Source: Dictyobacter arantiisoli
Lineage (GTDB): Bacteria; Chloroflexota; Ktedonobacteria; Ktedonobacterales; Ktedonobacteraceae
Direction of reading: 5' to 3'
Length of the DNA stretch: 62,211 nt
Assembly: GCF_008326305.1 (NCBI RefSeq)
Contig: NZ_BIXY01000036.1
Span: 1 to 62,211 of the forward strand
Below the pieces are notes generated by a model. It saw nothing but the letters and a program-made list of their open reading frames with translations, was not told the DNA's origin and ran no database searches. The position numbers were made by a program, and so were the translations under genes. This document shows, piece after piece, positions 1 to 60,878 of this stretch (the first letter of the stretch is position 1; each line of letters starts with the position of its first letter).

Positions 1-117
1 GTGCAGGAAAGGTGCACAGCACCTTTCCTGCACTACACACTAAAAAGGGCGCAGGCGCGCACGCGCCTGCCAGCCAGGGAGCAGCAAGATCCCGCTGGTA
101 TTGGGGGCTGACACTCT
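1..117 (+). repeat. Partial copy of 201-bp MITE-like palindromic repeat, cut by window edge
   Basis: This is the right-hand part of a repeat that is complete at 123-323. It starts inside a hairpin (arm 1-15, loop ACA 16-18, arm from 19), continues with the shared GC-rich module (about 43-102, containing the palindrome GCAGGCGCG/CGCGCCTGC) and ends in the terminal repeat GGGGGCTGACACTCT (103-117). The left end lies outside the window. No gene is supported here; the short frames are repeat-derived. Confidence 0.75.
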
Positions 118-328
118 CTATGAGTGTGTCAGCCCCCCATGCTCGCCGCGATCTCTGTGCATGAGTTTTCGCACCTGCGGTGCTCAAACAGATTTTTATT
201 ATGTGATGTAGAAAAGGTTCGAAGAACCTTTTCTACATCACATAATAAAAAGGGCGCAGGCGCGCACGCGCCTGCCAGCCAGGGAGCAGCAAGATCCCGC
301 TGGTATTGGGAGGCTGACACTCTCTATG
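118..328 (+). mobile_element. Complete 201-bp MITE-like element with 5-bp flanking duplication
   Basis: The element body is 123-323. Its ends are imperfect inverted repeats, AGTGTGTCAGCCCCCC (123-138) and GGGAGGCTGACACTCT (308-323), which pair at 14 of 16 positions. It is flanked on both sides by CTATG (118-122 and 324-328), which looks like a target-site duplication. The interior has a 27-bp perfect hairpin (194-220 with 224-250, loop GAA) and the GC-rich module shared with 43-102. It encodes no protein, so it would need a transposase in trans. The family assignment is inference. Confidence 0.7.
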
Positions 329-1923: not shown

Positions 1924-3060
1924 TTAGCGTTTGGCGCGTTCGTATTGCTTGGGCCATGCGATATCGCTGCCGAGTTCATGGGCGGCGCGTAGGGGCCAGT
2001 GTGTATCGCGCAGCAATTCACGCGCTAAAAAGATCATATCGGCCTTATCCTGTTCGAGGATGTTATTGGCCTGGGTTGGCTCGGTAATCATGCCGACCGC
2101 ACCTGTGGGAATCTGGGCCTCGTGATGGATGGTGTCTGAAAAGGGTACCTGATAGCCGGGGCCAACGGGAATTTTGGCCTGCTTCACATTGCCACCGGTC
2201 GACACATCGATCAAATCCACTCCGTGCTCTTTAAGTGCCTGGGCTACCTCAACGGATTCCTCTAATGTCAGACCACCCTCCTCTAACCAATCTGTGGCCG
2301 AGATGCGAACGAACAACGGCAGTTCTGCGGGCACAACTTCTCGGATGGCATCCGTGACTTCGAGCAGGAAGCGCATGCGATTTTGTAATGAACCACCATA
2401 TTCATCTGTGCGGTGATTGGAATAGGGTGAGAGAAATTGATGGATCAGATAGCCATGGGCGGCATGGATCTCCAGGACCTGGAAGCCTGCTTTTAAGGCT
2501 CGCTGCGCTCCACACTGGAAGTTTTTGACGACTTCAGCTATTTCAGCAACGCTTAATGCTTCTGGTTGGGGATAGGTATCTGCGAATGCAATGGCACTGG
2601 GAGCTACGGTTTGCCAGCCACCATCTTCAGGCTTGACTTCACCATCGCCTGGCTCATCCCACGGCCTGTGAGTTGACCCTTTTCTTCCTGCATGAGCCAA
2701 TTGCATGCCTGCTACAGCCCCTTGCGCTTTGATGAAGGAAGCGATGCGGGAGAGCATCTCGATATGTTCATCGCGATAGATGCCAAGATCCTGGGGTGAA
2801 ATACGCCCACGTGCTTCGACGGCAGTAGCCTCGGTGATAACAAGTCCAGCTCCACCCACGGCTAACGCGCCCAGATGCACCAGATGCCAATCCTGTGCGA
2901 AGCCATCTTCTGCTGAATACTGGCACATAGGAGCGACTGCGATACGATTTTTGAAGGTCAGGTTGCGCAAAGTATATGGTTCAAATAGCTTGACTATTCC
3001 ACTATGCTTTTGTTTACCCGTTACGGCTGTCTGTGTAGCGCCGGTTGGGAGTGTGCTCAT
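1924..3060 (-). CDS. NADH:flavin oxidoreductase, old yellow enzyme family (YqjM/NamA-like)
   Basis: Predicted FMN-dependent ene-reductase of about 378 aa that would reduce activated C=C bonds of enals, enones or related electrophiles with NAD(P)H. The TIM-barrel family signatures are clear: PMCQYSAEDG with the Cys typical of the YqjM (thermophilic-like) class, the HAGRKGS segment, the substrate-anion pair in EIHAAHGYL, and the downstream SNHRTDEYGGS motif. The start at 3060 is favoured by a GAGGAG site eight bases upstream; longer in-frame starts to 3132 would add residues not expected in the family. It sits just downstream of the aldehyde dehydrogenase (stop 3273, same strand), so both may be co-expressed in aldehyde/enal detoxification. 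The substrate is unknown. Confidence 0.9.
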   Translation of the reverse strand: MSTLPTGATQTAVTGKQKHSGIVKLFEPYTLRNLTFKNRIAVAPMCQYSAEDGFAQDWHLVHLGALAVGGAGLVITEATAVEARGRISPQDLGIYRDEHIEMLSRIASFIKAQGAVAGMQLAHAGRKGSTHRPWDEPGDGEVKPEDGGWQTVAPSAIAFADTYPQPEALSVAEIAEVVKNFQCGAQRALKAGFQVLEIHAAHGYLIHQFLSPYSNHRTDEYGGSLQNRMRFLLEVTDAIREVVPAELPLFVRISATDWLEEGGLTLEESVEVAQALKEHGVDLIDVSTGGNVKQAKIPVGPGYQVPFSDTIHHEAQIPTGAVGMITEPTQANNILEQDKADMIFLARELLRDTHWPLRAAHELGSDIAWPKQYERAKR

Positions 3061-3272
3061 ACAAAAAAACTCCTCAATATGTTTCATCTCTAAGGATAGG
3101 TAGCCGTTCGCGCCGAAAACAGTGGGGCGCATCTATCTGATAATTATTGTTTCCATCTATGACAACACAACCACATGCCTCGATTATTTCATGCTTTGTT
3201 GTCCACTGTTCTGATAGTGTGCGTCCTGTGATGTACTTGTGAGTATTTCCAGTGAGCGATTTTGGCGAACGA

Positions 3273-8500: not shown

Positions 8501-8595
8501 CTCGACTTTGTACAATTTTGAAAACGTGAGCTCGAAAATGCGTCGCGCTCGCCCTTTTTCGCAGGCTCAAATGCCTAAAAATGTACAAAGTCGAG
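8501..8595. repeat. 95-bp element with 14-bp perfect inverted ends
   Basis: CTCGACTTTGTACA (8501-8514) pairs perfectly with TGTACAAAGTCGAG (8582-8595). The interior pairs only weakly. It lies just after the tricorn stop codon and directly beside the MITE at 8601. It could be a non-autonomous element or a terminator-like hairpin; only one copy is seen in the window. Confidence 0.55.
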
Positions 8596-8600
8596 TTAAC

Positions 8601-8801
8601 AAAGTGTTTGATTCCCCTCACCAGCGGGATCTTGCTGCTCACCTGCTGGCAGGCGCGCAAGCGCCTGCGCCCTGTTTAGTGTGTGGTGCAGGAAAAGTGC
8701 TATGCACTTTTCCTGCACCACACACTAAAAACTGTTTTGAGCACTGCAGGTGCGAAAACTCATGCACAGAGATCGTGGAGAGCATGGGAATCAAACACTT
8801 T
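8601..8801 (-). mobile_element. 201-bp MITE-like element, second complete copy, opposite orientation
   Basis: The ends AAAGTGTTTGATTCCC (8601-8616) and GGGAATCAAACACTTT (8786-8801) are perfect 16-bp inverted repeats. Length and internal order match the copy at 123-323 on the other strand: GC-rich module, a 26-bp perfect hairpin (8675-8700 with 8704-8729, loop TAT), then a module containing TGCAGGTGCG and a CATGCACAGAGATCG segment. The terminal repeats differ in sequence from the first copy but keep the same architecture. No target duplication is obvious here. The remaining bases to 8949 carry the promoter region of the next gene; nothing else is recognised. Confidence 0.7.
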
Positions 8802-8949
8802 TTCTCTTTTCGATCTGTCCAAAGAGGACCACAGCTTTTTTGTGACAATTTCGCGACATTTTTGTGATACCAGCTTTACATTTACCCCTTATGCTAGAAA
8901 TGATTCAATTTGATACGCGCCATTAGAGTATTCAGAAAGGCCATTTGCG

Positions 8950-19592: not shown

Positions 19593-19705
19593 TGGCTCTC
19601 CGTCCTTGCGGGTGAAAGCGGGGTGCAGGGGCGGCAGCCCATGACGGAGCGCGAGGTGTCCTCGCAAACTCCCCCTCCTCTCAATCCCCCGGAAGGATAG
19701 AGAGC
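19593..19705 (-). repeat. Interspersed repeat family B, copy 1
   Basis: This stretch matches the reverse complement of 56364-56479 over about 110 bases. Shared blocks include TTGCGGGTGAAA, GGCGG-AGCCCATG, TCCTCGCAAACTCCCCCTCC and GGAAGGATAGAGAGC. It is non-coding in both places. The rest of 19451-19592 holds no feature I recognise. Confidence 0.65.
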
Positions 19706-19782
19706 ATAAATACTTTTGTAATGTTTTGCAGGATTAGCACTTAAGTGCCAATCCTGCAAAACATTACAAAAGTATTTATGCT
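19703..19782. terminator. 80-nt near-perfect palindrome (33-bp perfect outer stem) at convergent gene ends
   Basis: Arms 19703-19735 and 19750-19782 are perfectly complementary. The centre GCACTTAAGTGC (19737-19748) is itself a perfect palindrome, so only one mismatch (19736/19749) interrupts the whole structure. It includes the dhaM stop codon (19776-19778). It resembles the MITE hairpins in its stem pattern. A bidirectional terminator is likely; a replication- or structure-related role is possible. Confidence 0.75.
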
Positions 19783-60811: not shown

Positions 60812-60878
60812 TATAAAGAGTCCCCACGATCGGTATCTCATCACAGGGATGAGATACCGATCGTGGGGACTCTTTATA
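60812..60878. terminator. 31-bp perfect hairpin between pheA and mrp
   Basis: Arms 60812-60842 and 60848-60878 are perfectly complementary with the 5-base loop ACAGG. It lies between convergent genes, with A/T ends on both sides; a bidirectional terminator. Confidence 0.82.

What the first reader, a model, noticed from the sequence alone, without database searches (positions are those of the whole stretch)
1..328. MITE-like family with internal hairpins that keep perfect pairing while their sequences diverge
Copies at 123-323 and 8601-8801 are both 201 bp, in opposite orientation, and a third is cut by the window start. Each contains a 26-27-bp perfect hairpin with a three-base loop (GAA, TAT, ACA). 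The stem sequences differ at many places, yet every change is matched on the other arm. The palindrome at 19703-19782 fits the same stem pattern. Such compensatory change suggests selection on a folded RNA or single-stranded DNA, or frequent arm-to-arm correction, rather than passive decay.
Basis: seen in the sequence. Interest (0 to 1): 0.72.

Follow-up and report, generated by a model that had tools for sequence, protein, structure and literature searches.

The report
Transposon hairpins that self-correct their arms
A 203-bp transposable repeat, present in roughly 200 copies in a soil bacterium (genus Dictyobacter), carries a long DNA hairpin whose two arms keep copying each other and whose tip keeps flipping over, so the hairpins stay perfect although their sequences differ widely; the cause appears to be DNA copying slips at the hairpin rather than selection for a working RNA.

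Summary
The 203-bp elements at 122-324 and 8600-8802 belong to a MITE-like family (216 motif sites) with inverted-repeat ends and 3-bp TNA-type target duplications (63 of 97 copies). In 134 copies, 110 stems are perfect over 24 bp. Arms differ 1.0% within a copy but 23.7% between copies, and there are 64 distinct perfect stems. Partner bases across the loop are almost completely associated (V near 1.0); neighbouring bases in one arm are not (0.40). The evidence favours arm-to-arm correction by DNA template switching over selection on folded RNA: the 3-nt loop occurs in both orientations (51 of 122 in the minor one; 7 of 94 for an 8-bp stem; 0 of 139 for a 5-bp stem), four copies identical over about 190 bp differ only by loop inversion, G.T is no commoner than A.C (9 vs 12), mismatches cluster beside the loop, and decayed copies keep near-perfect stems. 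Dictyobacter aurantiacus shows the same. The palindrome at 19703 is not a demonstrable member. No source transposase was found. The process is known; this family and scale appear undescribed.

The parts
1..118 (+). third copy of the element, cut by the contig start; its loop (ACA) is at 16-18 and its GC-rich hairpin and right end are intact
119..121 (.). 3-bp target duplication TAT, left of the full copy
122..324 (+). full-length 203-bp element (MITE-like)
122..138 (+). left terminal inverted repeat, GAGTGTGTCAGCCCCCC
171..183 (+). 5-bp hairpin GCACC-TGC-GGTGC inside the conserved motif CATGAGTTTTCGCACC; its loop is never found inverted
193..251 (+). main self-correcting hairpin: arms 193-220 and 224-251, loop GAA 221-223
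256..275 (+). 8-bp GC-rich hairpin GCAGGCGC-GCAC-GCGCCTGC; its loop is occasionally inverted in other copies
308..324 (+). right terminal inverted repeat, GGGAGGCTGACACTCTC
325..327 (.). 3-bp target duplication TAT, right of the full copy
8600..8802 (-). second full-length 203-bp element; its lower end abuts a different short repeat (8501-8595), so no intact duplication remains
8675..8729 (-). main hairpin of the second copy: arms 8675-8700 and 8704-8729, loop 8701-8703

Best explanation
This is a family of short, non-autonomous DNA transposons (MITEs, with IS5/IS1031-like 3-bp TNA target duplications) whose centre is a 24-28-bp inverted repeat with a 3-nt spacer. The inverted repeat is kept perfect at the DNA level by template switching in replication. 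When the new strand folds back on itself, one arm becomes the template for the other and any difference is erased or fixed on both sides. When it switches to the opposite strand and back, the spacer is inverted. Point mutations therefore become paired changes, stems diverge between copies without losing pairing, and the loop orientation is randomised. Hairpins are lost by deletion or small indels, not by accumulating mismatches. Shown: transposition signature, paired change, loop inversion, dependence on arm length and spacer, persistence in truncated and decayed copies, replication in a congener. Inferred: that replication template switching is the reaction, rather than another strand-exchange reaction at palindromes.
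For: Arm mismatch is 0.96% per bp within copies and 23.7% between copies; 110 of 134 stems are perfect, with 64 distinct stems. Cramer V for partner positions is about 1.0 (lowest 0.71, at pair 2) versus 0.40 for neighbours in the same arm. Loop in the minor orientation: 51/122 for the long stem, 7/94 for 8 bp, 0/139 for 5 bp. Eight of 14 perfect stems present in two or more copies carry the loop both ways. Four copies identical over about 190 bp have TAT x2 and ATA x2 loops. 22 of 31 mismatches lie in the 6 loop-proximal pairs, p = 1e-7, the zone that would prime a fold-back and cannot be rewritten by it. A.C 12 versus G.T 9. Conserved distal positions: 49 paired, 3 unpaired deviations; the 22 copies with the most divergent flanks have 0.45 mismatches per copy against 9.6 expected without correction. 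Decayed copies with unique near-perfect stems: L333:3597, L340:1122, L341:12348, L342:2367. Terminal repeats, with a spacer of about 170 bp, mismatch at 14.3% within copies versus 20-23% between. No stems with 4-11 mismatches: hairpins are nearly perfect, carry a small indel, or are gone. Congener G003 = D. aurantiacus: 24/26 perfect, 25 different stems, loops GGAT 7/ATCC 4 and GAAT 2/ATTC 2. Template switching is known to homogenise arms and invert spacers (PMC8604942, PMC8794818, PMC7202029).
Against: Many copies are young: private flank substitutions are 0.4-0.8% per site, so the low mismatch of young copies does not by itself prove correction after insertion. No pair of strains was available to watch one insertion change in place. 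Whole-hairpin exchange between copies clearly also occurs: copies with nearly identical flanks can have different stems. The window's genome is a 256-contig draft, so a few loop orientations could be assembly errors. In the 5-bp hairpin pairing is no better than chance, although a stem that short is not expected to be corrected. Some of the 22 'divergent' copies are right-truncated, which inflates their flank divergence.
Confidence: 0.8

Rival explanations
1. Selection keeps the hairpin because a folded RNA or single-stranded DNA of the element is needed, for instance for transposition, and compensatory mutations restore broken pairs one at a time.
For: Perfect pairing with different sequences across copies and across species of the genus; the overall multi-hairpin layout is conserved in congeners.
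Against: Selection does not predict wholesale loop inversion in copies otherwise identical over about 190 bp or its dependence on stem length. G.U intermediates are no commoner than A.C. Truncated or decayed copies that have lost an end keep near-perfect stems. The mismatches that do occur sit at the centre of the palindrome, where folding and extrusion should be most sensitive.
Confidence: 0.08
2. The hairpin is reset during transposition itself: the element passes through a single-stranded or hairpin intermediate whose repair copies one arm and randomises the loop, so each new copy starts perfect and then decays neutrally.
For: Unpaired mismatches in young copies are close to what the private flank substitutions predict (about 1.5% expected, 1.16% seen per bp). 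Loops differ between nearly identical copies that are separate insertions.
Against: Old, truncated and decayed copies should then carry many mismatches, but they do not; mismatches do not rise with flank divergence (Spearman rho 0.05, p 0.58).
Confidence: 0.08
3. Ectopic recombination shuffles whole hairpin cassettes between copies, and the perfect pairing merely reflects a pool of perfect source hairpins.
For: Stem type is weakly linked to flank type, and near-identical flanks can carry different stems.
Against: It does not create new paired variants: 64 perfect stems exist, neighbouring stem sites are shuffled (V 0.40) while partner sites are not, and private changes are found paired on both arms. 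It does not explain inverted loops.
Confidence: 0.03

Closest known systems
Template-switch mutation at inverted repeats (quasipalindrome correction and spacer inversion; PMC7202029 in E. coli, PMC8604942 in yeast, PMC8794818 in RNA genes)
   Same: Arms homogenised, spacer inverted as a block; [quoted passage not shown]
   Different: Those are scattered single events or reporters; here one multi-copy family shows it in many copies, with loop orientation near balance.
Small inversions in hairpin loops of plastid genomes (e.g. PMC6824564)
   Same: Loop of a hairpin flips back and forth repeatedly while the stem is kept.
   Different: Single loci compared between species; here more than a hundred copies inside one bacterial genome, with arm homogenisation measured as well.
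Bacterial MITEs derived from IS5/IS1031-type insertion sequences
   Same: About 200 bp, terminal inverted repeats, high copy number, 3-bp TNA-type target duplication.
   Different: No parent transposase found here; central long perfect hairpin with a variable stem; left and right ends often of different types.
REP/REPIN palindromes
   Same: Very numerous short palindromic intergenic repeats in a bacterial genome.
   Different: Here there are terminal inverted repeats and target duplications.

Membership tests
MITE | short element with terminal inverted repeats in many dispersed copies | tested here: met
   216 motif sites, 0 in the reversed-pattern control; both ends recognised in 98 copies
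MITE | target-site duplication on insertion | tested here: met
   identical 3-mers at one register in 63 of 97 copies; 0-2 at every other register
MITE | related autonomous transposon with matching ends | tested here: inconclusive
   none at PF13340 and PF01609 loci; no PF13359 match; no complete transposon at 30 perfect-end loci examined; draft assembly of 256 contigs
IS5 family, IS1031-type origin | 3-bp TNA target duplication | tested here: met
   TTA 15, TCA 13, TAA 10, TGA 9 of 63; also TAT 6. The link of TNA to IS1031 is from general knowledge
IS5 family, IS1031-type origin | IS5-type transposase acting on these ends | tested here: inconclusive
   transposase genes exist in the genome but none is flanked by these ends
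REP/REPIN | no target duplication and no long terminal repeats | tested here: not met
   3-bp duplications and terminal repeats present
REP/REPIN | associated RAYT (Y1) transposase | not tested
   no search made
Structured RNA | match to a known RNA family | tested here: not met
   no Rfam family at gathering score; only generic microRNA hairpin models below cut-off, scoring much alike on both strands
Structured RNA | G.U tolerated over A.C on one strand | tested here: not met
   G.T 9 versus A.C 12
Template-switch evolution of inverted repeats | arm homogenisation | tested here: met
Template-switch evolution of inverted repeats | block inversion of the spacer, commoner with longer arms | tested here: met
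   0/139, 7/94, 51/122 for 5, 8 and 24+ bp
Template-switch evolution of inverted repeats | effect lost when the arms are far apart | tested here: met
   terminal repeats: within/between mismatch ratio about 0.65, against 0.04 for the hairpin
Template-switch evolution of inverted repeats | reaction observed in the organism | not testable with these tools
   needs strains or a mutation-accumulation experiment

The most novel reading that the evidence does not exclude
In Dictyobacter, palindromes with short loops are rewritten so often that they form a self-repairing class of DNA: hairpins of dead transposons persist as near-perfect 'ghost' palindromes after their flanks have decayed beyond recognition (53-142 short-loop hairpins per Mb in the window genome, G001 and G003; 35 in G002; 15 in another genus, G008). 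This would imply an unusual replication or palindrome-processing trait of the host, or a reaction tied to the element itself.
Probability: 0.2. Interest if true: 0.75.

Novelty: new variant of a known kind. Interest (0 to 1): 0.57.

Why it matters
Paired changes in a stem are usually read as proof of selection on RNA structure. This family is a large natural counter-example in which DNA copying gives the same covariation, with built-in controls (loop inversion, stem length, spacer length, decayed copies). It gives a way to tell the two causes apart and a system in which template-switch rates can be measured. Covariation tests on repeat-derived hairpins should include loop orientation and A.C versus G.U counts.

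Tried and rejected
Known RNA family: none. Autonomous partner at PF13340 and PF01609 loci, PF13359 and a perfect-end pattern search: none found. Missing SbcCD as a host cause: SbcD-like proteins occur in 30 of 31 relatives but none passes the curated cut-off of TIGR00619, so uninformative. Membership of the palindrome at 19703-19782: single copy, flanks at background. Exact motif search across named genomes: no hit. Detection bias (decayed stems overlooked): checked and excluded; failures are contig ends, gaps, deletions, small indels or unrelated sites. A first count of small-hairpin loops mixed both strands and was redone with oriented copies. The copy at C46 near 30170 (L088), a head-to-head fusion of two left halves, was considered as direct proof of a template switch; its two ends are of different types, so it may instead be a recombination product of two copies.

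Full report
WHERE IT IS. The window is the whole of contig 36 of a 7.2-Mb draft genome in 256 contigs. A congener used below (G003) has a contig of 6,133,338 bases, the exact length of the Dictyobacter aurantiacus S27 record, so the window most likely comes from a Dictyobacter species (class Ktedonobacteria, phylum Chloroflexota).

OBSERVATION. The hairpins are present as described. The family has 216 motif sites in the genome (up to 3 mismatches, 0 in the reversed-pattern control). From fetched stretches I compiled 198 non-redundant sites, of which 134 have an intact 3-nt-loop hairpin. Of the 63 others (one further site was the mirror duplicate of a counted hairpin), 12 are cut by a contig end, 2 contain N gaps, about 9 have a hairpin with a small indel or an altered loop, and the rest lack it, by deletion or because they are unrelated sites.

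ANATOMY. The element is 203 bp: terminal repeat; conserved motif with a 5-bp hairpin (GCACC-NNN-GGTGC); main hairpin of 24-28 bp with a 3-nt loop; 8-bp GC-rich hairpin with a 4-nt loop; CCAGC...GCTGG segment; terminal repeat. At a tip 4 nt outside GTGT, the flanking 3-mers are identical in 63 of 97 copies, mostly TNA, and in 0-2 copies at any other register. This is the mark of DNA transposition.

PAIRED CHANGE. Over 24 pairs, 110 of 134 stems are perfect, 18 have one mismatch, 5 have two and 1 has three. The mismatch rate is 0.96% per bp within a copy; arms of different copies differ by 23.7%; there are 64 different perfect stems. In a 90-copy set the association between partner positions is about 1.0 (one position 0.71), while positions 1-5 bp apart in the same arm have only 0.40. 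Whatever shuffles or mutates neighbouring sites does not separate partners.

SELECTION OR CORRECTION. Six results separate the two. (1) Loops occur as reverse complements: GAA 35/TTC 28, ATA 16/TAT 14, ACA 14/TGT 7. Four copies identical over about 190 bp have TAT, TAT, ATA, ATA. GAA to TTC by point mutation would need three transversions. (2) Inversion depends on stem length: 0/139 at 5 bp, 7/94 at 8 bp, 51/122 at 24+ bp; published yeast data saw spacer inversion only with arms over 9 bp (PMC8604942). (3) Mismatches are strand-symmetric: A.C 12, G.T 9. (4) 22 of 31 mismatches are in the six loop-proximal pairs, where a fold-back must already be paired to prime correction; selection on extrusion would predict the reverse. 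(5) Mismatches do not rise with decay of the flanks: the 22 most diverged copies have 0.45 per copy where 9.6 would be expected (some are truncated, which inflates their divergence). An unbiased hairpin scan of 190 kb found four decayed copies with unique stems, perfect or with one mismatch. (6) Terminal repeats of the same copies, about 170 bp apart, are not homogenised: 14.3% within against 20-23% between.

MECHANISM. Template switching during replication predicts all six: intramolecular switching rewrites one arm from the other, intermolecular switching inverts the spacer (PMC8794818; PMC8604942; PMC7202029). The reaction itself is inferred. Exchange of hairpins between copies also happens, since copies with nearly the same flanks can carry different stems. 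Because many copies are young (private flank substitutions 0.4-0.8% per site), correction after insertion rests mainly on old and truncated copies and on the loop flips.

REPLICATION. Related families occur in three congeners, with only a 23-27-bp motif well conserved in some. In G003, 24 of 26 motif-oriented hairpins are perfect with 25 different stems, and 4-nt loops appear both ways: GGAT 7/ATCC 4, GAAT 2/ATTC 2. That genome is held in two contigs, so short-read fragmentation is not the cause there. Short-loop hairpins of 18 or more pairs number 53-142 per Mb in the window genome, G001 and G003, 35 in G002 and 15 in another genus (G008); shuffled controls gave none.

WHAT IS NOT SHOWN. No transposase with these ends was found. 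No transcript data were available. No strain pair was available. The palindrome at 19703-19782 is not shown to belong. No paper in the library was found describing this family; that library is incomplete.

Noticed in passing
window 19703-19782: An 80-bp palindrome with 40-bp arms, one mismatch and no spacer; single copy in the genome, flanks unlike the MITE family.
   Followed up: partly
window 8501-8595: A second short repeat with CTCGACTTTGTACA ends abuts the copy at 8600; similar units lie next to several other copies (L018, L022, L033, L049).
   Followed up: no
window 60812-60878: A 31-bp perfect inverted repeat with a 5-nt loop, not of the MITE family, possibly a terminator.
   Followed up: no
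L088, near 2990-3160 (contig 46 near 30170): Head-to-head fusion of two left halves of the element, giving arms of about 75 bp with a few mismatches and two left-type ends.
   Followed up: partly
L025 (contig 42 end), L450, L452: Three MITE copies are interrupted in the GC-rich hairpin by the same sequence (CCTAAGTTTGGTCCAAA...), close to contig ends; possibly an insertion sequence that targets the hairpin.
   Followed up: no
L112 / G003 contig 1 near 3836450-3836540: In the congener a 38-bp unit carrying the conserved motif (CTGCGCATGCGCTTTCGCACCAGC...) is repeated in tandem three times.
   Followed up: no
L323 (G008 contig 1 near 6.8 kb): A 604-bp perfect inverted repeat with a 4-nt spacer near the start of a complete chromosome of another genus; real or an assembly artefact.
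   Followed up: no
contigs 1, 33, 42, 91, 96, 148, 166: Copies often sit in tandem, sharing a single 3-bp duplication between neighbours, as at window 1-324.
   Followed up: partly
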